Assembly (NCBI RefSeq): GCF_000015645.1
Contig: NC_008816.1
Coordinates: forward strand, 372,001-436,000
Direction: 5' to 3'
DNA: 64,000 bases
Source: Prochlorococcus marinus str. AS9601
Lineage (GTDB): Bacteria; Cyanobacteriota; Cyanobacteriia; PCC-6307; Cyanobiaceae
The translations under genes were made by a program, and so were the position numbers. The notes under the pieces are model-generated. The model saw nothing but the letters and a program-made list of their open reading frames with translations, had not been told where the DNA came from and ran no database searches. Shown one piece after another: positions 1 through 8,990 of this stretch (positions within the stretch are counted from its first letter, which is position 1; each line of letters starts with the position of its first letter).

Positions 1-33
1 CTTTCTGCTGAAATCAAAGATAAAGGGTTTTGA
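1..33 (+). CDS. 3' end of an upstream CDS (partial, unidentified)
   Basis: The first 33 bases read in frame as ten residues (LSAEIKDKGF) followed by TGA at 31-33. The stop overlaps the likely TTG start of the next gene by a TTGA overlap, as expected inside a translationally coupled operon. Ten residues cannot identify the protein. By comparison with the minus-strand operon further right, where a GHKL ATPase precedes the same two-gene order, the missing gene could be an equivalent ATPase. That is inference from layout only. Confidence 0.4.
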   Translation, partial: LSAEIKDKGF

Positions 34-920
34 TTTTGTCGAATATTGCTTATCCATATCCAAATTTGATGCCTTGGGTTAGAGGAAATTCATTATGGGA
101 ATATTCCCTAAATAAAGGAGACTTTTTTGATTTTAAAAATGGAGTTGATAATTGGGACTATTATTCATCAATAGAAATTAAATGTAAATTGATTTGGGAT
201 ATTAAGGAAGCTTTTATAAATGCAAATCTATATCCTATTTTAAATAATTCCAAAGTTGTATTTCTTTTGACAACAGGATCAGGACAATATGGTATCGCAA
301 GAAAAAAAGTTTTTGAATATCAACTTAATGAAGATATTGAATTGCTTAATACCTTCATATTTAATTTAAAATCGAATCAAATTTCAAATATAGTAAAGCT
401 GAGGCTAATAATTTGTACTAATGAGGTTGAGATAAATGGTTTTCATTATAGAAATGGAAGTATACTTTATGATGAATCTGCAAACTTAGAATTAGAGGGT
501 AATTTAGCAAGATTACCAGTTTCAAAAGAAGATTTAAGTCAAATAAATTTTAGATACAAGGATGCAATATGGTATGTATCTTTTAGGGCCGAGGATTTTT
601 ATGAAACTTTCACAAATACTTATCATCTATATCTAAATTCTAAAAATTTAGATATTGATTTTCAATTAAAAAATAATAAATTCCTAGTACAATCGATCAA
701 GGCTGATACTATAGCAACCATTATTAGATCATCTTTATTAGATGATGATTTGAATTTTGATTATCAAGAAGATTATCCAGAGTTTTCATTAGGATTCGTA
801 CTAAAAAATTGGTTAAAAAACTTTATTGAAGGTCCAAGTGATTTGCAAAATTTGATAAAAAAGATCAAGTCAAGTCCTAATGATTTTAACTGTGAATGTC
901 AAAGCATTTTTTGTGATTAG
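30..920 (+). CDS. Hypothetical island protein, first gene of a DUF6339 pair
   Basis: This 296-aa protein has no domain I recognise. It is AT-rich and host-like in composition (one 60-base line, 601-660, has 11 G/C). The N-terminus has an aromatic, proline-rich start (YPYPNLMPW) and the C-terminus is Cys-rich (CECQSIFC). The TTG start overlaps the upstream stop, with AAAGGG just before it; a second TTG lies two codons on. It ends immediately before the DUF6339 gene, so the two are surely co-transcribed. In position it matches the 343-aa protein of the minus-strand operon, which also lies just upstream of a DUF6339-like gene. I could not show homology by eye, apart from loose similarity around their central to C-terminal parts. 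Confidence 0.7.
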   Translation: MILSNIAYPYPNLMPWVRGNSLWEYSLNKGDFFDFKNGVDNWDYYSSIEIKCKLIWDIKEAFINANLYPILNNSKVVFLLTTGSGQYGIARKKVFEYQLNEDIELLNTFIFNLKSNQISNIVKLRLIICTNEVEINGFHYRNGSILYDESANLELEGNLARLPVSKEDLSQINFRYKDAIWYVSFRAEDFYETFTNTYHLYLNSKNLDIDFQLKNNKFLVQSIKADTIATIIRSSLLDDDLNFDYQEDYPEFSLGFVLKNWLKNFIEGPSDLQNLIKKIKSSPNDFNCECQSIFCD

Positions 921-1733
921 ATGATCTATTTACTTCCTCAAATTCAAGATTTTACTGCAAATAAATTACTTGATTTATTTATAGAAAAAAGTTCAGTTGG
1001 AAAATTTAATCCTGAATATAAAGAAAGATTTTATACTGCTACAGGTGGACAAAGAATCCCTATTGATTATTTGTTAGATTTGCGTCGATCTATTTTAAAT
1101 TGTGCAAACAAATATAATTTTCCTAACAAGCAAAAGTCTTTTCTTGATTTCGAATATGAAGTGGCAGAAATTTTTTTTAATTGGCCTTATTTATGGATTG
1201 ATCAAAATAATAAAGAGCCAAATGGGGAGGCATTAAGAAATAATTTTTGGTCTTATATAACTATAATTTTAATGCCTGATATCGCCGTTTGGAGGTGGCC
1301 TATACCTTCTGAAAATGCTTCTAAAAAATCATGGGAGGTTCGGATGAAAGGTGGTGGTACAAGAAATACTTTTCAAAGGATTTTTAGAAGATTAATTAGT
1401 TTTGATAAAGGTAAAGAATATCAACTTCATGAAAGATTAAATCTGATAAAAGGTTTAAATGAGGACGAGTTTCAAGCCATTATTGAGAGAACAAGTGTAA
1501 GCTCATGCTCTAAACTTTCCATCTTGTTGGCAGAGGAAATTATTTCTAGAAAAAAATTAAATATGCAAACTGATAAAGTTAAACAAGATATTTATCGAAA
1601 TTCAATAATAGATTTAACTGCCTATGGCAAAGTTCAATCATTTGATTTATTGGAAGATATAGAATTGAAAGAATTAATTGCAAAAGTTTTTGAATTAAAA
1701 GAAAGTGAAATTTTAGAATTAAAAAATTTATAG
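921..1733 (+). CDS. DUF6339 family protein
   Basis: This 270-aa protein matches the family pattern I remember for DUF6339: an early ATGGxR box (about residues 41-46), LxxLR, an F-D/E helix, then LMPDIAVWRWP (about 117-127), a TRNTFQRIFRR box, and a late LNEDEFQAIIERTS box. The family is typically encoded beside cytosine methyltransferases, GHKL ATPases and Z1-domain helicases in defence islands; its biochemical role is unknown to me. ATG directly follows the stop of the upstream gene with no gap. It converges on the methyltransferase gene, with 17 bp between the two stops. A second, more divergent DUF6339-like gene sits in the facing operon. Confidence 0.75.
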   Translation: MIYLLPQIQDFTANKLLDLFIEKSSVGKFNPEYKERFYTATGGQRIPIDYLLDLRRSILNCANKYNFPNKQKSFLDFEYEVAEIFFNWPYLWIDQNNKEPNGEALRNNFWSYITIILMPDIAVWRWPIPSENASKKSWEVRMKGGGTRNTFQRIFRRLISFDKGKEYQLHERLNLIKGLNEDEFQAIIERTSVSSCSKLSILLAEEIISRKKLNMQTDKVKQDIYRNSIIDLTAYGKVQSFDLLEDIELKELIAKVFELKESEILELKNL

Positions 1734-1750: not shown

Positions 1751-3847
1751 TTATGAGACATCTCTAAATTCTTTTGAATAAACTTGAGATATTTTTTCAA
1801 TATTATTTATTTCTAGATCTTCTGTATTTATTTTCTCAATTATTTTTTCTTTATTATCTTTTTTTGATAAAGCTAAAAGAGCGCAATAGCCTATACCATC
1901 TTTATCCATTTCTAATAAATGACCTATATGTATATCTCTATTCATATTGCTGAATTTTAAAATTTCATGATCAATATCCATGATCTGAGAAATAATTCTG
2001 CTAATAAATATTGATTGTTTTATCTCTGTGGTTAATCCAACAGTAGCTAATGCACCTCTTACCGAATTCCTGGAAAACAAATCATATTCTTTTCTTGCGA
2101 TTTCACTCCAATCGATTTCATCTTTTATAAGTTCTTCAGCAAACAGTTCTAATGAAGGGATATATTTTTCAAGGCTAAAACTTTTTATTTTCATTTTTCT
2201 AGCTTTATCTTGCAGAAAAATCTCAGGGGTAGGCCAAAAGTTTTTTAATCTTTGATAGGTTTCTTTCTTCCTGTTTTCAAGATCTTTATCTCCTAAGATT
2301 GCAGGTTTATTTTTTTCTTTAGTATTTTTTTTGAAAGTCTCTGGTAGTAAATTTCCAAGACATGCATTCCATGCCCTTATATTACTTGGAATTATTTTTC
2401 TTCCTTCCCTTTTTTTTGTCCATATAAGTTCAACTTCTTTTTTATTTGATTCATACCAGTTAATAAGATTTTCTCTAAGTTTGGGCACTACATCAGGTTG
2501 AGTAAATTCTTTCTCATTTTTAATTGATTTCATGAAAGATTTGCCGAGTTCAAAAGCAACAATTGGTGCAACGGCTTCTCCAATCTGGTGGAATCTATTT
2601 GAAGGCCCTCCATAAAAATTGAAACCATCTGGGAAAGACTGAACTCTTGCCGCTTCTCTAACTGATAGGGTTCTATTCTGGTGAGGGTGAATATACCAAT
2701 AACCATCTTTTGACATATGCGCAGTTATTGTCAGACATGGTTCATTAGGTTTGAGGATATTATATTTATCACCAAAACTCATTTTCTGATTTTGTTTTAC
2801 TTGCTTACCTTCTCTGAAAGCTTTGCTCGTAACTGAATATCTTCTTTGCTCTTCTGATAATTGGGAATATTTGATCCCGGTTGATCGCATTAATTTAAAT
2901 GTCTCAAGATCATCTTCCCTTACTTTTCTTATCAGATGATCATGAATCATCTCGTCATCAATATCCAACCAATTCCTCATTAATTTCTGATAATCGTTTT
3001 TCGGTCCTTCATAGCTGTATTTTTCATCCCACTTTTCATCCCATCCTCCTTTAAGTGGAGGGAGATCTGAAATCGCTTCGTCTAAGGTGACTGCCTCTTC
3101 GAGAGAATCATATTTTGGCTTTGGCCATTTCATAGGAGCGCATTCATTTATTTTTGTTCCGGAAATAAATAATCTTGGCCTTAGTTGGGGTACTCCATAT
3201 TGCCATGCATAAATCAATTTAGGATTTATGCGATAGCCAGCTTTCTCAGCTCTATTAATGATTGATCTATATATTTCCTGCTCACCTGTCTGCGCAATAT
3301 CAGTAACATTCTCCATGAGAAAAGCTTTTGGTTTAACCTGTTCCACTATCGAAATAAATGATTCCCATAATTCTCTTCTATCTTCATTTAGTTCCTGATG
3401 TTGAGCAGAAACTTCTTCGTTGTGTTTTCTCCATTTGATATTTCGGGAGAAAGGCTGACATGGTGGTCCACCTGCAATAAGTGATATTTCTCCACACTTA
3501 TTAAGTTGTTCTGAAATTTCATTAATAACTTTTCTTTTGCTTAAATCACATTCATATGAACATCCACCAAAGTGATGTCTGTGAGTCATTATTGAATCGT
3601 TTCTGATATCGCAGGCCAGGATTACATCAAAATTTGCACGATGCAGTCCAAGGCTTAAACCACCGGCACCTGAAAAAAGGTCAACAGCAAAATAAGGTTC
3701 TTTTTTTATAGATCGAACTTTTGCTGCATATTCAGGAAGTTCATCAAAACTGCATGAATCTACATGTGCCTCAAGTTCTGATGAAGGCCCTCTTACAGGA
3801 CTTAATCTGTGTGGATCACTTTTCCCTACTGCATTTTTATGAATCAT
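1751..3847 (-). CDS. dcm: DNA (cytosine-5-)-methyltransferase with long C-terminal extension
   Basis: This 698-aa C5-cytosine methyltransferase transfers a methyl group from SAM to DNA cytosine. All key motifs are visible: SAM-binding DLFSGAGG (56-63), catalytic PPCQ with Cys130, MENV (178-181), QLRPRL (221-226), REAARVQSFPD (397-407) and GEAVAP (423-428). The target-recognition region lies between about 230 and 390. The family core ends near residue 440, leaving about 255 residues with no domain I recognise. It is the last gene of a four-gene operon: its ATG overlaps the upstream stop by 4 bp (ATGA). The 3' third is much more AT-rich than the 5' part. It could be the modification arm of a restriction-like system or an orphan methylase. 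Confidence 0.95.
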   Translation of the reverse strand: MIHKNAVGKSDPHRLSPVRGPSSELEAHVDSCSFDELPEYAAKVRSIKKEPYFAVDLFSGAGGLSLGLHRANFDVILACDIRNDSIMTHRHHFGGCSYECDLSKRKVINEISEQLNKCGEISLIAGGPPCQPFSRNIKWRKHNEEVSAQHQELNEDRRELWESFISIVEQVKPKAFLMENVTDIAQTGEQEIYRSIINRAEKAGYRINPKLIYAWQYGVPQLRPRLFISGTKINECAPMKWPKPKYDSLEEAVTLDEAISDLPPLKGGWDEKWDEKYSYEGPKNDYQKLMRNWLDIDDEMIHDHLIRKVREDDLETFKLMRSTGIKYSQLSEEQRRYSVTSKAFREGKQVKQNQKMSFGDKYNILKPNEPCLTITAHMSKDGYWYIHPHQNRTLSVREAARVQSFPDGFNFYGGPSNRFHQIGEAVAPIVAFELGKSFMKSIKNEKEFTQPDVVPKLRENLINWYESNKKEVELIWTKKREGRKIIPSNIRAWNACLGNLLPETFKKNTKEKNKPAILGDKDLENRKKETYQRLKNFWPTPEIFLQDKARKMKIKSFSLEKYIPSLELFAEELIKDEIDWSEIARKEYDLFSRNSVRGALATVGLTTEIKQSIFISRIISQIMDIDHEILKFSNMNRDIHIGHLLEMDKDGIGYCALLALSKKDNKEKIIEKINTEDLEINNIEKISQVYSKEFRDVS

Positions 3848-4557
3848 GCGACCTCTTCACTCTGAGTATCAATTAACTGCTGGAGTTGTTCTTCACTTAA
3901 AAGATCAAGACATATTGAACCTCCAAGGGAATTTAGTTTTCTTATCGCAATTCTTACTTTGCTGTCTGGTAATTCAACTAGTTTTTCAGTAAGTATTCTA
4001 TTGATTTTTGGGATCAGGCCAAATTCTCGATCACTCAAACCAAGATGAAGTTCCTGACTGGTAAATAATTTTTTGACCAGGGAATAGTCAGAATGATCAT
4101 TCTCCATCATCCTGTCGGCAGCAAAAAAAAGTCTCGAAAAAGTATTTCTGCCATGTCCATTTATTGATGATGTCCCAAGAAATCTAAGTGATGGAACATG
4201 TTTCTTTCCTGTTCCAACAGTAAATCCATCTTCCGGATCAACCGGAATATTACCTCTCCATCTAAGCCACGGAATATTTGGATATCTTATTACGCATAAC
4301 CAGTGCCATATCCTCATATCAGTAAGAATATGAGAAGGCAGAGATTTGAATGTTGTATGAACACACTCAACTAATCTTGCATCCAGGTTTGCACCAATTA
4401 CTTTTTCGAGAATAAGTTGATCTATAAGTGTTGAGAGATTCGTAAGATCAACCGTGCAGTTGACTGCCTCTACACTTACAGAATCTGGATTTCTTAAAGC
4501 AGAGATAAGTCCATTACTTATTAGAGGTGATTTCAATCTGAAGAGTTTTTCGCTCAT
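3844..4557 (-). CDS. DUF6339-like protein of the GHKL/methyltransferase operon
   Basis: This 237-aa protein shares a pattern with the DUF6339 protein at 921-1733. Both have a WHWL/FWSY aromatic segment, then a short step to WLRWRG/VWRWP, a GRNTFSRLFF/TRNTFQRIFR box, and a C-terminal leucine-rich tail beginning LSDREF/LNEDEF. I see this as divergent homology, not proof. The gene overlaps its neighbours by 4 bp at each end (ATGA junctions), so it is translated with the 343-aa gene before it and the methyltransferase after it. Its molecular role is unknown. Composition (25 of 60 G/C at 4201-4260) is far above the host background. Confidence 0.7.
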   Translation of the reverse strand: MSEKLFRLKSPLISNGLISALRNPDSVSVEAVNCTVDLTNLSTLIDQLILEKVIGANLDARLVECVHTTFKSLPSHILTDMRIWHWLCVIRYPNIPWLRWRGNIPVDPEDGFTVGTGKKHVPSLRFLGTSSINGHGRNTFSRLFFAADRMMENDHSDYSLVKKLFTSQELHLGLSDREFGLIPKINRILTEKLVELPDSKVRIAIRKLNSLGGSICLDLLSEEQLQQLIDTQSEEVA

Positions 4558-5585
4558 GCAACCTCCTCTTTTTCTAGGTCTGCGGGAATATCTGATTCAA
4601 AACTGCACCCTCTTGCCATTATTTCGGCCAATTCCAGAATCTTTGTTTCCTGCTGGATTATTGAACTCATTTTTATAATGAACTTCTGAAAAGATTCGGG
4701 TGATCTAAGTTCATTAGCAAGAGCGACAACCGCCTCATGTGAAGAAATATTTGTTTCAAGAAGATTCTTGGAAAATAGAGATAGAGTCTGAAGTTGTGAT
4801 GGCGGCAATTGCTCAACAATTTCTTCACTGCTCAGGTCACTGTTTGTATTCAACATATTCTGGATGGAGTTCATCGAAATAGAAATAAGCATGGTCCAAA
4901 CAGTGGAACAAATTGAGGTGAAGATGATATCTCTCTGAAGGGAATTGATATCTTTCCTCAATGCCTTACTCATCAGAAGTTTTTTCAATGATGCAGTCAC
5001 ATCTGCATTCATTTCAATTACTGGAGGTTCACTTGGGATTAATCTCCATAACTGATCTTTGCTTTCAGGGGGAAAGGATTGCCACTTTATGTTGAAGATG
5101 GAGTCATTATTAGCTTCGGCGGTAGCAAAACGAATGGTATGAATCAGACTTCTTCCAATTATCTGACCCATTTCTGTGGCATAGCCGCTCCTTGATTTTT
5201 CTCCGGCAAATTGTTCTGTTCTTACAAGAAGTGCTTCTGCCCTGACTTCTTCTCCATTTAAAAAAGGTATATAGGAAGTCTCTGAAAAAAAGAATCCACC
5301 ACCACCATCCTCTAAATCAATTATTTCTCTTCTACCTGTTGATCTGCTTATAAGACGGCATATGAATTTAACAGGAGGATTTTCCCTTTCTGTGGGATGA
5401 AGAGTTTCTTCCCATTCAAATGGTGCAGTTAGCAGTATCTCAAGTTTTGTCTTTTCAAGTTTGCCATTGAACTTGAAAGTAATTCCATTGCTTACTTCCT
5501 GAATTACCTCTTCAGAAATGCTGTCTGGAGCTGTTATTCGAAATGCTCCATCAAGATCTATTGTTTTCCAGGGGACAAAATGCAT
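4554..5585 (-). CDS. Hypothetical protein of the GHKL/methyltransferase operon
   Basis: This 343-aa protein is unrecognised. It has no signal peptide or clear membrane segment; a hydrophobic helix lies around residues 215-240. The N-terminal half looks beta-rich (alternating segments up to about 140, with a run of glycines followed by FFFSETSY), and the C-terminal half looks helical. I see no PD-(D/E)XK, HNH or PLD nuclease motif. It starts 2 bp after the ATPase stop and overlaps the DUF6339-like gene by 4 bp, which implies fixed stoichiometry with both. It may link the ATPase to the methylase module; this is inferred from position only. Confidence 0.75.
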   Translation of the reverse strand: MHFVPWKTIDLDGAFRITAPDSISEEVIQEVSNGITFKFNGKLEKTKLEILLTAPFEWEETLHPTERENPPVKFICRLISRSTGRREIIDLEDGGGGFFFSETSYIPFLNGEEVRAEALLVRTEQFAGEKSRSGYATEMGQIIGRSLIHTIRFATAEANNDSIFNIKWQSFPPESKDQLWRLIPSEPPVIEMNADVTASLKKLLMSKALRKDINSLQRDIIFTSICSTVWTMLISISMNSIQNMLNTNSDLSSEEIVEQLPPSQLQTLSLFSKNLLETNISSHEAVVALANELRSPESFQKFIIKMSSIIQQETKILELAEIMARGCSFESDIPADLEKEEVA

Positions 5586-5587
5586 GA

Positions 5588-7552
5588 TTAACCTACCTTC
5601 CTGAAGCCTGCAATTTCAGGGTTTACTCCGGATGGAGGTTTGACTATGCACTCAAAAGGAACTGATGAAAATTGGTTTTCGGCAGAGAATACAAATCTCC
5701 TTGAATCAGAGTCGTCATATGAAATATATTGTTCACTCCCCATAATTCTCATATCACTTATTCCCCACATTTCTCCCTGGCCACTGTCTGCAATGCTCTG
5801 GAAAGATAAATGTACTTTTGCAGTTTTGATTGATTCACCTGATCGTACTAATTTGCCGGCTATTCTCCATCCATTGGCTTTTTTAATGAAGGAGCATTGA
5901 TCTCTATCTATAACAACTTCAAGTGCGGAACTTTTTGTCTTGGATAGACTTTTCTTTTCTTTAATTCCTCTGCCAAGATTAATCATTCTTTTAAGCATTT
6001 CTGGTCCTTCATCCGGCGGAGCAATAAATGAAGTCAGTAAGTTCTGAATGAGGATCTGCCTTAGTTCATATCTGATTCCTCTAAGTCTGTTGGCATGACC
6101 TCTCCAGGTATAACTTTCTCTCAGTCTTCTTGTTGTAGGCAGCCAGTCATCATGAGTCACTGGTTCACCTGCACGGAAATATTCTTCAGCGAATGCGTTA
6201 TTTTCCCTGCTCAACTCTGTCTTGTCAGATTCGGCAATCTCATTCAATGATGTACCTACAAATGCAGCTGCACAATAGGAACCTCCATCACTTAACTTTG
6301 TACCTTCGGCATAATCAATAACCATTCCAGAACCCCTTATAAGTGCAATAGTTGAACGGCATGGCAGACATTCCTCTTTGGAAGAGACTCTTGTAACTCC
6401 AAGTCTGACAGTACTTTTGAGCTCATCATGAAGAAGTTCAGGATTGTCTGAGGGTTCCACTCGTCTAGGTATGGGAAACTCAACATCAATTGAGGAACTG
6501 TCGCCTGGGAATAATGATTTTGCACCTTCGAAAGGTTCTACTCTTCCGCACTCAACGAATGGAGACCATATTTCATCAGCACGGGCTTCAGATATATATT
6601 CTGCTGATTTGCCCTCTTCACGAAATACTCTTGCTTTAAAATCAAGTCTTTCCCAGCTGATTGCAGGCCAGAACCATTTTGATGCGGCTTTTGTGAAATC
6701 TCTGCAGAGCTCCTCGGGATCTCTTATCCCTGACGAACCGGTATCATCGCGATCAGGTTCATGAAAAGTTGGGATGAGGATAGTTGTTCCGCACTCAGTA
6801 TTATTGTCACGATTGAGAAGAATTTTTTCTGCATCTCTTTCTTTCATCCAGGTGGATTCTGCAATAGGAATTCCATCTTTTTCACTTTCAGATCCCATGT
6901 AGGCACCATCAAGCCATGATTTCCCGTCCATTTCATGAGCGGGAATTTCGCTTCTTCCAAAAATTCTTAATTTCTTTCTGCCTTCAATTCTTGATGAGAA
7001 AAGAACAGTGAATATTCTTGAATGCATCCAGCTGACTGCCTTCCCCAGCCCAAAGCTTCCTCCTAATCCAGACTCTTTTCCGGTTGAAAAATTCTGCACA
7101 CAGAGCTTACGGAAATTTCCTTTCTCGTCCCAGTCATCACCTGTCAGCCCATCAGTTCCGTAATCACTGATTTTCAGACAGACAAGATCAGATGATTTCA
7201 TTGATTCAAGTCCGGCCTTCAGGGTGAGGGCAGTTCCACTTGAACCTTTCACTGATGAAAGATGAGGGATAAGAGTTTCACTGTTGATTGATTTAAGAAA
7301 TTTCTCTTTTTTCTCTCCCTTCAGCACAATCAGATCAAAAAATATTTTCACTTTTTTATCCTTTCTCTGATCGAGACTGTTCTGACAGATTTCTCTGACA
7401 AGTGTTTCCAGCAGTGATCGTTTTCTCTGAGATCCACCTGCTTCAAAAATTTCACTTGCGGCATTACCACCACTGGATCTACCCTGTCCAAGTGATGGAG
7501 TACCAATCCATTTCAGTTGTGTCTTTGCTGTTTTCAATTCCCCTTCAGACAC
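5588..7552 (-). CDS. GHKL (MORC/MutL-like) ATPase, predicted defence component
   Basis: This 654-aa protein has a Bergerat ATP-binding fold. The N box is REICQNSLDQ (about 53-62, with E54 and N58), the second motif is DYGTDG (130-135), and a glycine-rich lid GLGGSFGLGK lies at about 162-171. GHKL ATPases of this kind are known from restriction-like gene clusters related to the ancestors of eukaryotic MORC proteins, where they are thought to act as ATP-driven DNA clamps or loaders. It is the first gene of the operon. The GTG start follows an AT-rich TTTATATA stretch with no clear Shine-Dalgarno, so the exact start is uncertain. GC is high for this genome (27 of 60 at 7081-7140), a sign of transfer. 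Confidence 0.85.
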   Translation of the reverse strand: MSEGELKTAKTQLKWIGTPSLGQGRSSGGNAASEIFEAGGSQRKRSLLETLVREICQNSLDQRKDKKVKIFFDLIVLKGEKKEKFLKSINSETLIPHLSSVKGSSGTALTLKAGLESMKSSDLVCLKISDYGTDGLTGDDWDEKGNFRKLCVQNFSTGKESGLGGSFGLGKAVSWMHSRIFTVLFSSRIEGRKKLRIFGRSEIPAHEMDGKSWLDGAYMGSESEKDGIPIAESTWMKERDAEKILLNRDNNTECGTTILIPTFHEPDRDDTGSSGIRDPEELCRDFTKAASKWFWPAISWERLDFKARVFREEGKSAEYISEARADEIWSPFVECGRVEPFEGAKSLFPGDSSSIDVEFPIPRRVEPSDNPELLHDELKSTVRLGVTRVSSKEECLPCRSTIALIRGSGMVIDYAEGTKLSDGGSYCAAAFVGTSLNEIAESDKTELSRENNAFAEEYFRAGEPVTHDDWLPTTRRLRESYTWRGHANRLRGIRYELRQILIQNLLTSFIAPPDEGPEMLKRMINLGRGIKEKKSLSKTKSSALEVVIDRDQCSFIKKANGWRIAGKLVRSGESIKTAKVHLSFQSIADSGQGEMWGISDMRIMGSEQYISYDDSDSRRFVFSAENQFSSVPFECIVKPPSGVNPEIAGFRKVG

Positions 7553-7720: not shown

Positions 7721-8713
7721 TTATATGGAAAGTTGAAAATGGCTGTAGCGCATCAACATTTTTATATCTCTGTGGCCGCTGCATGCACTTATCTCCAGGG
7801 CACTCATTCCCGAACGCCACATTCTGCTTATGGCTATATGTCTTAGATCATGAAATCTGAGAGTTTCAAGTCCTGCTTTTTTTCGGGCTTTATCAAATCC
7901 ATTTCTTGCAGCACCTTTTGAAAGTTCTATAACTTTCCCATCTCTTCCCTGTAATTCCTCAAGGATCTTCTGCGCCTTTTCAGGGAAAGGAACAAGCCTC
8001 ATTCCGGATGAATTATCTATTGCGGCACAATTCTTTCTATATATATAGAGTAATTTTTTCTTCAGATCTATATTTCTCCAGGTCAGGCTCAAAAGTTCGG
8101 AGCGGCGGAAGCCAGTTGTCAGTGCAAGCTTTGTGAGTCTCAGATGATTTTGGTTGGACATCTGCGACAGTTCAAACAGGAGTCTTTTTTCATCTTCATT
8201 CGTTAAAAAAGGAGCTCTTGCATCTCCTGTCCCTCTCACTCTCAGTTGCCTTGCGGGGTTATCTTTTATTTCCGCTCCTCTTTCATCTCTTGCCCAGTCA
8301 ATCAATACTCTTAATATCCTCAGTTCCCGCATAACTGTATTCGGTTTCACCTTCAGTAATCGTTCATCTCTCCAGACTGCAAAATGCTTAATCTGCAGAT
8401 CACTTAGTGGAATATCTCCCAGCCAGCTTTCTGCAGTAACCCTGAGAGGATATTTTTCATTCTCCGCACTGCGGTGCAGAAGTAATGGACCATTTATATA
8501 GTCATTGATTGCCTCTCCCAGGGTGACGGGAGTGTCATTTAAAACCTTTTTTGTTCTCTCTTCGACTGCATCTGCCCAGGATTCAGCCAGATCTCTGGAA
8601 AGAAAATTTCTGGACCTCGGGCCTACATAATTCTTCCTTCTGATAAGGACCTGCCAGCCGCTGCCGCTTCTTCTGATTGTTGCCATTTCGGTGCCATCGT
8701 TTGTGTGATGCAC
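7721..8713 (-). CDS. Tyrosine recombinase / integrase
   Basis: This is a complete tyrosine site-specific recombinase. An N-terminal arm and SAM-like DNA-binding domain (about 1-165) precede the catalytic domain. Active-site elements are Arg in TGFRRSELL, HDLRH (His and Arg), GHRD (His) and the nucleophile Tyr in MRYSHF near the end. It would integrate or excise the island, most likely at the adjacent tRNA-Thr gene, whose 3' end lies about 110 bp away. The longest start is GTG at 8713 with GGAGG touching it; ATG at 8686 (MATIRRSG) is the more natural domain start. GC is very high for this genome (33 of 60 at 8641-8700), so it is recently acquired. Confidence 0.9.
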   Translation of the reverse strand: MHHTNDGTEMATIRRSGSGWQVLIRRKNYVGPRSRNFLSRDLAESWADAVEERTKKVLNDTPVTLGEAINDYINGPLLLHRSAENEKYPLRVTAESWLGDIPLSDLQIKHFAVWRDERLLKVKPNTVMRELRILRVLIDWARDERGAEIKDNPARQLRVRGTGDARAPFLTNEDEKRLLFELSQMSNQNHLRLTKLALTTGFRRSELLSLTWRNIDLKKKLLYIYRKNCAAIDNSSGMRLVPFPEKAQKILEELQGRDGKVIELSKGAARNGFDKARKKAGLETLRFHDLRHIAISRMWRSGMSALEISACSGHRDIKMLMRYSHFQLSI

Positions 8714-8768: not shown

Positions 8769-8826
8769 CTGAATAATTTTTTTGTGCGATAGTGGTAATC
8801 TCACTGATACCAAGCTATCCCGCGAG

Positions 8827-8898
<72 letters not shown>

Positions 8899-8908
8899 AA
8901 TTTTAAAG

Positions 8909-8990
8909 TGGGCCGGGTTGGATTTGAACCAACGTAGGCAGAGCCAGCGGATTTACAGTCCGCCCCCTTTAACCACTCGGGCACCGACCC
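8909..8990 (-). tRNA. tRNA-Tyr (GTA)
   Basis: This 82-nt class II tRNA on the minus strand has acceptor GGGTCGG/CCGGCCC, anticodon GTA in GGACTGTAAATCC, a long variable arm, and T-loop GGTTCAAAT. CCA is not encoded. It is upstream of tRNA-Thr in the same direction and divergent from aroQ. Confidence 0.97.

What the first reader, a model, noticed from the sequence alone, without database searches (positions are those of the whole stretch)
1751..7552. Four-gene GHKL ATPase / unknown / DUF6339-like / cytosine methylase operon in a tRNA island: candidate defence system
The sequence shows a tightly coupled operon (2-bp gap, then two 4-bp ATGA overlaps) with a clear GHKL ATPase, a complete C5-cytosine methyltransferase and two uncharacterised proteins. 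GHKL/MORC-like ATPases and DUF6339 proteins are known from restriction-like loci. Most Prochlorococcus genomes carry few restriction-modification systems, so this is unusual for the host. That the operon protects against phage is inference.
Basis: partly seen in the sequence, partly recalled or inferred. Interest (0 to 1): 0.75.

Follow-up and report, generated by a model that had tools for sequence, protein, structure and literature searches.

The report
Methylase half of swappable defence system
The four genes are the constant, DNA-marking half of a probable anti-virus restriction-modification system in the ocean cyanobacterium Prochlorococcus, whose cutting half, mostly just outside the window, is exchanged between strains for quite different gene sets.

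Summary
The four-gene operon (1751-7552, minus strand) encodes a paraMORC2 GHKL ATPase, unknown B, DUF6339 and a C5-cytosine methylase. The first three are relatives of PADLOC's candidate PDC-M33. The operon is half of a larger locus cut by the window edge: a convergent operon (Vsr, Z1 ATPase, DUF4420 nuclease, second paraMORC2, B', DUF6339-like) ends 17 bp from the methylase gene. Both lie in a 24.3-kb island bounded by a 98-bp repeat that holds a whole tRNA-Thr.

New here: in 13 loci of the genus the methylase operon is nearly constant (ATPase 88-99% identical to the window's), while the segment between methylase and Vsr is exchanged: Z1-DUF4420-trio (5), a second trio (4), MORC-Z1-DUF4420-AIPR (3) or nothing (1). 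All 12 cassettes bring a second GHKL ATPase. Relationships reverse between halves (ATPases, window/G117: 98% versus 49%; G117/L035: 88% versus 84%), so cassettes were exchanged.

Best reading: a MORC-type restriction-modification system whose constant methylase-plus-ATPase half marks and checks DNA and works with interchangeable cutting halves. Phage defence and mechanism are inferred. New variant of a known kind.

The parts
5588..7552 (-). paraMORC2 GHKL ATPase of the constant (methylase-linked) half, 654 aa
   Evidence: PADLOC PDC-M33A E=4.3e-28; GHKL motifs and ExxxH (E463..H467) invariant in 12 of 12 rows
4554..5585 (-). B protein, 343 aa: beta-sandwich-like N-terminal part and helical C-terminal part; distant relative of PDC-M33B
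   Evidence: No Pfam hit over a cut-off and no PADLOC hit itself; profile match to Bacillota B proteins, probability 98.5, E=3.4e-15, of which L077's is PDC-M33B E=2e-53; model pLDDT 84, pTM 0.58
3844..4557 (-). DUF6339 protein, 237 aa (PDC-M33C)
   Evidence: PF19866 E=1.4e-16; PDC-M33C E=1.8e-11; model pLDDT 90, no clear structural relative found
1751..3847 (-). C5-cytosine DNA methyltransferase, 698 aa, with about 250 aa of unknown function after the catalytic domain
   Evidence: PF00145 E=1.4e-55 over 55-438; motifs I, IV, VI, X found by pattern, the pattern for VIII found nothing and QLRPR was read by eye (motif meanings recalled); the only PF00145 match in the genome at E<=0.001
1826..1860 (.). 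right exchange junction: left of here, inside the last 25-36 codons of the methylase gene, loci with other cassette architectures lose DNA similarity
   Evidence: BLASTN blocks start at window 1826-1839 in 6 of 6 loci with another or no cassette architecture (G191, G461, L029, L033, L034, G555); tails. In G117 and L035, same architecture but diverged, similarity runs on to window 1132
921..1733 (+). C', DUF6339-like last gene of the convergent cassette operon, 270 aa
   Evidence: PF19866 E=0.032, below cut-off; BLASTP to the DUF6339 protein E=1e-4; same iterative-search family
30..920 (+). B', B-type protein of the convergent cassette operon, 296 aa; the operon continues left of the window: GHKL' G000:C1:370048-372033, DUF4420 369074-370048, Z1 366365-369070, Vsr 365886-366299
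   Evidence: profile match to the B family, probability 95.8, E=7.5e-9
7721..8713 (-). tyrosine recombinase/integrase of the island, 330 aa
   Evidence: PF00589 E=1.8e-23; 93% and 92% identical copies beside the same tRNA in G117 and G461
8825..8922 (.). right copy of the 98-bp perfect direct repeat (whole tRNA-Thr plus 24-25 bp); left copy at G000:C1:356526-356623
   Evidence: BLASTN 98/98 identity; one tRNA-Thr only in the stretches read of the unoccupied G543 and the nearly unoccupied G571

Best explanation
The operon is the constant modification half of a mobile, MORC-type restriction-modification system. Shown: the methylase and a paraMORC2-B-DUF6339 trio form one conserved operon; in Prochlorococcus a second, exchangeable gene block sits between the 3' end of the methylase gene and the 3' end of Vsr; each of the 12 blocks examined brings another GHKL ATPase (paraMORC2 or classical MORC), in 8 of them with a Z1 ATPase and a PD-(D/E)XK DUF4420 nuclease. 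Inferred: the methylase marks the host's sites with 5-methylcytosine; the paraMORC2 trio, a MutL-like ATP-driven clamp with two scaffold subunits, stays with the methylase and reads or enforces the methylation state; on unmethylated incoming DNA it engages the GHKL ATPase of the cassette, which works with the Z1 motor and the DUF4420 nuclease to destroy the DNA; Vsr repairs the T:G mismatches that deaminated 5-methylcytosine leaves (its textbook role, recalled), or supplies the cut where the cassette holds no other recognisable nuclease. Because the site-defining methylase half stays the same, unrelated cutting halves can be swapped in without re-matching sequence specificity.
For: Convergent Vsr-Z1-DUF4420-GHKL-B-C operon beside the methylase. 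Constant versus exchanged parts: ATPase of the methylase half 98% between window and each of G117, G191, G461, L029, cassette ATPase 49, 26, 27, 26%; G117 versus L035 88% and 84%, a reversal of order. Shared DNA junctions. Second GHKL in 12 of 12 cassettes. Eleven haloarchaeal loci also pair a methylase-adjacent trio with another trio. Trio loci elsewhere hold MutH/Sau3AI-like, FokI-like, HNH, GmrSD and type III nucleases. Catalytic motifs are present in the island's enzymes. Published R-M context of paraMORCs (PMC2292703); a published Z1 + PD-(D/E)XK + cytosine methylase six-gene defence candidate (PMC9523054); a Z1-containing ATPase known to drive cleavage with a partner nuclease, N.CglI/R.CglI (PMC4267653, passages); a GHKL-PD-(D/E)XK protein that restricts phages (PMC12137116, passages).
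Against: No experiment; target sequence unknown; no 5mC data. In type 1 loci the two halves are convergent, so they are not one transcript. One locus has no cassette (L034), the S. elongatus plasmid has an Abi gene in its place, and Bacillota loci show one trio only, so pairing is not universal: 15 of 59 loci show two or more GHKL genes, all in cyanobacteria or haloarchaea. Type 2 cassettes hold no recognised nuclease. The order methylase-cassette-Vsr is not kept outside Prochlorococcus: in G195 and L038 Vsr lies next to the methylase. In seven haloarchaeal loci both trios diverge at about the same rate, which linkage alone would also give.
Confidence: 0.55

Rival explanations
1. Two independent defence systems share one hot spot: a PDC-M33-plus-methylase system on the right, and changing neighbours (a Z1/DUF4420 six-gene system, a bare PDC-M33, an Mza-like system) on the left.
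For: The four-gene operon stands without a cassette in L034 and on the S. elongatus plasmid; the slot in G502 and G167 holds a complete Vsr-methylase-MORC-Z1-DUF4420-AIPR set without the window's operon; type 1 cassettes are on the other strand.
Against: None of the 10 cassettes that could be read in full shows a C5 methylase of its own (nor do the readable parts of L030/G709 and L035/G554), while the Mza-like set without the operon has one; type 2 and 3 cassettes follow the methylase on the same strand; the join falls at the same place in the methylase gene in 6 of 6 loci of other architecture.
Confidence: 0.25
2. The methylase operon is mainly a chromosome-marking or gene-regulating unit (orphan-like methylase with an ATPase chaperone), not defence.
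For: It is retained without any cassette in L034.
Against: Patchy presence (16 of 200 genus genomes), island with integrase, cassettes in 12 of 13 loci (8 with a DUF4420 nuclease), PADLOC candidate status.
Confidence: 0.08
3. The cassettes attack modified phage DNA (type IV-like) and the methylase half marks targets rather than protecting self.
For: A GmrSD gene, a type IV restriction enzyme, lies in one trio locus (L043).
Against: A self-marking methylase in the same locus would be suicidal unless further regulated; Vsr, usually the companion of protective 5mC (recalled), is seen in all 11 of the 13 genus loci where its place can be read.
Confidence: 0.05

Closest known systems
paraMORC2 R-M loci (Iyer, Abhiman and Aravind 2008, PMC2292703; abstract and main text parts 1-3 of 4 read)
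   Same: GHKL ATPase with ExxxH motif; company of cytosine methylases, Vsr, an SFII helicase with the DThhQXuRhFG motif (the island's Z1 protein has DTLMQMGRWFG) and an RE-fold nuclease
   Different: The parts read name no B or DUF6339 partner, no constant and exchanged halves and no paired paraMORC2 trios; they do mention MORC loci that also encode a paraMORC1 (figures not visible, legends only)
PADLOC PDC-M33 (PDC-M33A, B, C)
   Same: Same three genes in the same order; A and C match directly, B only through relatives
   Different: Catalogue candidate only; here in an operon with a C5 methylase and paired with a second GHKL module
Six-gene 'Type I' candidate defence system of PMC9523054 (section 11 read and passages)
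   Same: Z1 protein, PD-(D/E)XK protein (the text prints DUF4220), cytosine methylase, three further genes, association with repair endonucleases
   Different: The text does not name the three extra genes; a second, methylase-linked trio and exchange of cassettes are not mentioned in that section
MzaABCDE
   Same: The island's Z1 and DUF4420 match MzaC (E=2.5e-72) and MzaD (E=1.1e-5); L022's MORC matches MzaB and the AIPR proteins of L020 and L022 match MzaE
   Different: No MzaB or MzaE among the 11 island genes scanned; in G697, G647 and G586 a MORC-Z1-DUF4420-AIPR set sits beside the constant methylase half

Membership tests
paraMORC2 GHKL family (PMC2292703) | GHKL ATP-binding motifs I-IV intact | tested here: met
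   E54/N58/D61, D130/T133/G135, G164/G165/G168/G170/K171, G255-T256 invariant in 12 of 12 rows
[quoted passage not shown]
   E463 and H467 invariant in 12 of 12 rows; that the stretch lies in an S5 fold is assumed, no model of the ATPase was made
paraMORC2 GHKL family (PMC2292703) | R-M gene neighbourhood (methylase, Vsr, SFII helicase, RE-fold nuclease) | tested here: met
paraMORC2 GHKL family (PMC2292703) | ATP-driven DNA clamping or looping | not testable with these tools
   biochemistry needed
PADLOC PDC-M33 | A (GHKL) and C (DUF6339) genes in one operon | tested here: met
   A E=4.3e-28 and C E=1.8e-11
PADLOC PDC-M33 | a PDC-M33B gene between them | tested here: inconclusive
   Window B gives no PADLOC hit at E<=1; it is joined only by profile comparison with Bacillota B proteins (probability 98.5), one of which is PDC-M33B
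MzaABCDE | MzaB (MORC/MutL-like) and MzaE (AIPR) present with MzaC and MzaD | tested here: not met
   Of 11 island genes scanned in PADLOC only Z1 and DUF4420 match Mza models, C and D; the island's far-left ORFs were not scanned
Classical type II R-M | cognate sequence-specific endonuclease for the methylase | tested here: inconclusive
   No named restriction endonuclease among 14 island genes scanned in Pfam; DUF4420 and Vsr are the near candidates, and a PDDEXK_1 gene lies elsewhere in the island (G000:C1:361007-361858)
Six-gene Type I candidate of PMC9523054 | the three additional genes are the GHKL-B-DUF6339 trio | tested here: inconclusive
Tycheposon-like tRNA element | tRNA border and tyrosine recombinase | tested here: met
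   features as given in PMC10872708 passages
Tycheposon-like tRNA element | own replication or mobilisation genes, independent transfer | not tested
   -

The most novel reading that the evidence does not exclude
A two-ATPase licensing scheme: a fixed methylase-bound paraMORC2 trio acts as a general adaptor that reads the host's cytosine-methylation mark and hands unmarked DNA to a second GHKL ATPase (paraMORC2 or MORC) carried by any of several unrelated nuclease cassettes. Specificity thus lies in the constant half and killing in a plug-in half, a modular logic not described for restriction-modification systems in what I read, and a bacterial parallel to paired MORC/MutL ATPases acting on methylated DNA.
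Probability: 0.3. Interest if true: 0.85.

Novelty: new variant of a known kind. Interest (0 to 1): 0.62.

Why it matters
In ordinary R-M systems the cutter and the marker must agree on a sequence, so swapping one alone should kill the cell. Here natural strains seem to have done the swap repeatedly, at one fixed junction, with cassettes as different as a second paraMORC2 trio and an Mza-like MORC-Z1-DUF4420-AIPR set. That makes a direct test of which part reads the methyl mark possible, and it gives the GHKL/MORC ATPases, poorly understood in bacteria, a natural experiment. It also suggests that two catalogued defence candidates (PDC-M33 and Mza-like sets) can be alternative partners of one methylase module.

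Tried and rejected
DUF6339 fold: Foldseek against the PDB gave no match with E<=0.001 (16 with E<=10); the VIA second look gave only middling helical matches (best Z 5.5, 68 residues), so no function is read from it. B fold: many Ig/FnIII-like beta-sandwich matches over residues 1-160 (best Z 8.8, 110 residues), too common to name a family; the peptidylarginine deiminase rows that head Foldseek (E down to 2.5e-4, TM under 0.2) were not taken as relatives. Sequence searches of solved structures gave nothing at E<=0.1 for the GHKL, B or DUF6339 profiles; the methylase matches known C5 methylases, which does not give its target. No paper of the held library contains DUF6339 or PDC-M33. Viral contigs: 4 weak GHKL relatives with the A1 profile, neighbourhoods not studied, so phage carriage is not claimed. 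B families: Bacillota B versus B' directly is weak (probability 14.6, E=0.0019), though each matches the window's B family. HMM labelling missed B in Bacillota; I then counted B by position (70 of 73, 49 by HMM). A statistical model for the junction coincidence and a formal tree-incongruence test were not run; the identity matrix was judged enough for exchange. The ATPase tree is a quick one with several long branches and a warning that two of them meet.

The 72-of-73 count is of GHKL genes fetched with profile A1 of 12 proteins: two from the window's island, four from loci first found through DUF6339 and six from plasmid loci found with the window's ATPase, so the sample leans to trio-type GHKL genes. 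The scan kept the best 80 of 261 confirmed relatives (71 loci). Genes under 400 aa were not counted, and 10 of 83 counted genes had under 2 kb downstream and were dropped.

The 13-locus table leaves out four genus genomes whose contigs end too early or whose gene is in pieces: G604 (=L031), G677 (=L032), G547 and G723. In L030/G709 and L035/G554 the contig ends inside Z1, so Vsr could not be looked for. Locus identities such as L029=G548 and L030=G709 are inferred from equal coordinates. The haloarchaeal matrix uses one partner a locus; L046 and L052 hold a third trio that was left out, and in L056 the methylase lies between the two ATPases.
Full report
What is there. The window is bases 372001-436000 of a single-contig 1.67-Mb genome. 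Its operon's nearest records are named Prochlorococcus (seven records with full-length ATPase matches at 88-98% identity), so I take the host to be Prochlorococcus. The reported operon is exact in coordinates and spacing. Its products are a C5-cytosine methylase (PF00145, 1.4e-55), a DUF6339 protein (PF19866, 1.4e-16), a protein B without a Pfam hit over a cut-off, and a GHKL ATPase that Pfam misses but PADLOC names PDC-M33A (4.3e-28). PADLOC names the DUF6339 protein PDC-M33C (1.8e-11); window B gives no PADLOC hit and is tied to PDC-M33B only through its Bacillota relatives. In a 12-row alignment the GHKL motifs and an ExxxH motif (E463..H467) are invariant. Iyer et al. 2008 gave ExxxH as a mark of the paraMORC2 family, predominant in cyanobacteria and Gram-positives, and placed MORC and paraMORC ATPases in R-M loci with methylases, Vsr, a distinct SFII helicase and RE-fold nucleases (PMC2292703, main text parts 1-3 of 4 read).

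What the window edge hides. Left of the window (stretches fetched) lies a convergent operon: Vsr (PF03852, 2.2e-32), Z1 ATPase (PF10593, 2.9e-55), DUF4420 PD-(D/E)XK nuclease (PF14390, 9.6e-34), a second paraMORC2-type ATPase (PDC-M33A, 2.6e-15), then B' and a DUF6339-like protein, which are the first two ORFs of the window. B' (30-920) and the DUF6339-like gene (921-1733) abut, and the latter ends 17 bp from the end of the methylase gene. Both sides therefore carry a GHKL-B-DUF6339 trio. The two ATPases are 25% identical over 494 aligned positions. B and B' families match by profile (probability 95.8, E=7.5e-9). The methylase is the only PF00145 match in the genome.

The island. A 98-bp stretch with the whole tRNA-Thr occurs twice, perfectly, 24.3 kb apart, with the integrase beside the right copy. 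In G543 the left flank runs on, with about 0.2 kb between, to a single tRNA-Thr/tRNA-Tyr pair and the same right flank: an unoccupied site. G571 is the same except for about 2 kb that includes a SIMPL (DUF541) gene of the island. Two tRNA-Thr copies were found in G461 and G167, but only one in the stretches read of G117, G502, G191 and G555, so the repeat is not seen round every such island. In PMC10872708 (passages only) tycheposons are described with a tRNA border and a tyrosine recombinase, which this island has; their other features were not tested.

Constant and exchanged halves. In the genus sample the methylase-half ATPase is in 16 of 200 genomes, own genome included (11 of 66 of those at least 90% complete and at most 5% contaminated). 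Thirteen loci, gathered, could be read on both sides of the methylase. Cassette type 1, Z1-DUF4420-paraMORC2-B-C, convergent: the window, G573, G709 (=L030), and as a diverged subtype G117 and L035 (=G554). Type 2, a 101-aa ORF and a second trio, same strand as the methylase, no Z1 or DUF4420 found: G191, G461, L029 (=G548), G555. Type 3, MORC-Z1-DUF4420-AIPR, same strand: G697, G647, G586 (=L033). No cassette (about 0.4 kb between Vsr and methylase): L034 (=G634). All 12 cassettes hold a second GHKL ATPase. Vsr closes the far side in all 11 loci whose contig reaches that far.

Exchange, not merely fast change. In the ten-locus matrix the methylase-half ATPase is 87-99% identical in all pairs; the three later loci G573, G647 and G697 are 97, 98 and 99% identical to the window's. 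The cassette ATPase is 98% identical between the window and L030, but 49-50% for G117 and L035 and 23-27% for type 2. The order reverses: window-G117 98% (constant half) and 49% (cassette); G117-L035 88% and 84%. At DNA level the similarity to the window starts at window 1826-1839, inside the methylase's last codons, in six of six loci of other or no architecture (G191, G461, L029, L033, L034, G555), and on the other side it ends in the last 110 bases of Vsr in the loci of that set that show Vsr. In G117 and L035, of the same architecture, it runs on to window 1132. The C-terminal tails of the methylase and Vsr differ between cassette types, and Vsr tails also within type 2.

How general. A scan of 84,980 species genomes with the GHKL profile gave 71 loci. 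Of 73 GHKL genes of at least 400 aa with at least 2 kb downstream, 72 are followed by a DUF6339-family gene and 70 by a B-sized ORF (49 recognised by HMM); 41 of 59 loci, and 32 of 40 loci of at least 15 kb, hold a C5 methylase; 15 of 59 hold two or more GHKL genes, all cyanobacterial or haloarchaeal. The sample leans to trio-type genes (see Tried and rejected). Nucleases found in trio loci elsewhere, from ten proteins picked for a Pfam scan, are a MutH/Sau3AI-like enzyme (L084), a FokI-type domain (L080), HNH (L090, L084), type III Res with endonuclease domain (L044, L097) and GmrSD (L043). Eleven haloarchaeal loci hold a methylase-adjacent trio whose ATPases fall in one clade of 14 rows (SH-aLRT 100, quick tree) plus a further trio from outside it. 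In seven of these the two ATPases diverge in step; in L056, L057, L060 and L065 the partner is 28-39% identical to those of the other loci (L056-L057: 63%) while the methylase-adjacent one is 54-94%. In other picocyanobacteria the constant half stands with MORC-Z1-DUF4420-AIPR (G080/L022, G195), with a Z1-trio cassette (L038) or with a second trio (L037; in G131/L021 only the ATPase of that trio was recognised by HMM). In G195 and L038 Vsr lies next to the methylase, so the Prochlorococcus gene order is not general.

Reading. The anatomy fits a restriction-modification system split into a constant methylase-plus-ATPase half and a plug-in cutting half. A MutL-like ATPase trio that stays with the methylase is the obvious candidate for reading the methyl mark and recruiting whichever cutter is present. 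The predicted folds of B (beta-sandwich plus helices, pLDDT 84, pTM 0.58) and DUF6339 (mostly helical, pLDDT 90, pTM 0.88) gave no recognised nuclease relative, so I treat them as scaffold or adaptor subunits; that is inference. For the cutter, a Z1-containing ATPase is known to drive DNA cleavage by a partner nuclease in the CglI system (PMC4267653, passages), and a GHKL-PD-(D/E)XK protein, VcSduA, restricts phages (PMC12137116, passages). Against the reading: some loci have the constant half without a cassette, type 2 cassettes show no known nuclease beyond Vsr, and nothing here measures methylation or phage resistance.

What is known and what is new. Known: paraMORC2 in R-M loci (2008), PDC-M33 as a PADLOC candidate, and a Z1 + PD-(D/E)XK + methylase six-gene candidate from a language-model study (PMC9523054, section 11 read), which the island's cassette plus methylase resembles. 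Not found in the papers read, nor in titles and abstracts returned by full-text searches for DUF6339, PDC-M33, MORC/GHKL R-M, paraMORC and Mza terms: the paired trios, the constant/exchanged division, or the fixed junction. I file it as a new variant of a known kind.

Noticed in passing
L120 (G167) and L118/L119 (G502), same tRNA-Thr slot: Between the conserved Vsr and integrase lies a full Vsr-methylase(298 aa)-MORC-Z1-DUF4420-AIPR set instead of the window's operon: an Mza-like R-M system in the same slot.
   Followed up: partly
G191, G461, G555, L029, L034: just after the methylase stop codon: An inverted repeat close to CCGTACATAT-nnn-ATATGTACGG follows the methylase gene in these type 2 and cassette-less loci and not in the window, G117, L030, L035 or L033 (G573, G647, G697 not looked at). 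Terminator, operator or recombination site is unknown.
   Followed up: no
G000:C1:356170-356510 and 365302-365650 (outside the window): A stretch of about 340 bp near the left tRNA-Thr recurs inside the island ahead of Vsr and matches several relatives (overlapping BLASTN blocks).
   Followed up: no
window 1751-2480 (methylase residues about 455-698): A C-terminal extension of about 250 aa on the methylase has no Pfam hit over a cut-off. Picocyanobacterial relatives are equally long (641-701 aa), while most haloarchaeal methylases beside trios are 363-397 aa, one 492; it may bind the trio.
   Followed up: no
L024 5552-7915; genes of like size in L046, L049, L052, L060, L063, L068: A pair of genes (about 508 and 258 aa) beside the second trio of haloarchaea; L024's pair has no Pfam or PADLOC hit, the others are matched by size and place only. 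Candidate unknown effector.
   Followed up: partly
L084 9968-17452: Bacillota locus with trio, C5 methylase and a MutH/Sau3AI-type endonuclease: a MutL-like ATPase beside a MutH-like nuclease inside an R-M locus.
   Followed up: partly
L016 10731-15542 (G191): A 1603-aa helicase-domain protein stands left of Vsr, seen only in G191 among the loci read.
   Followed up: no
G000:C1:361007-361858 (L005 1007-1858): A PDDEXK_1/Cas4-like nuclease gene elsewhere in the island, with 93-96% identical copies in G117, G191, G167 and G555.
   Followed up: no
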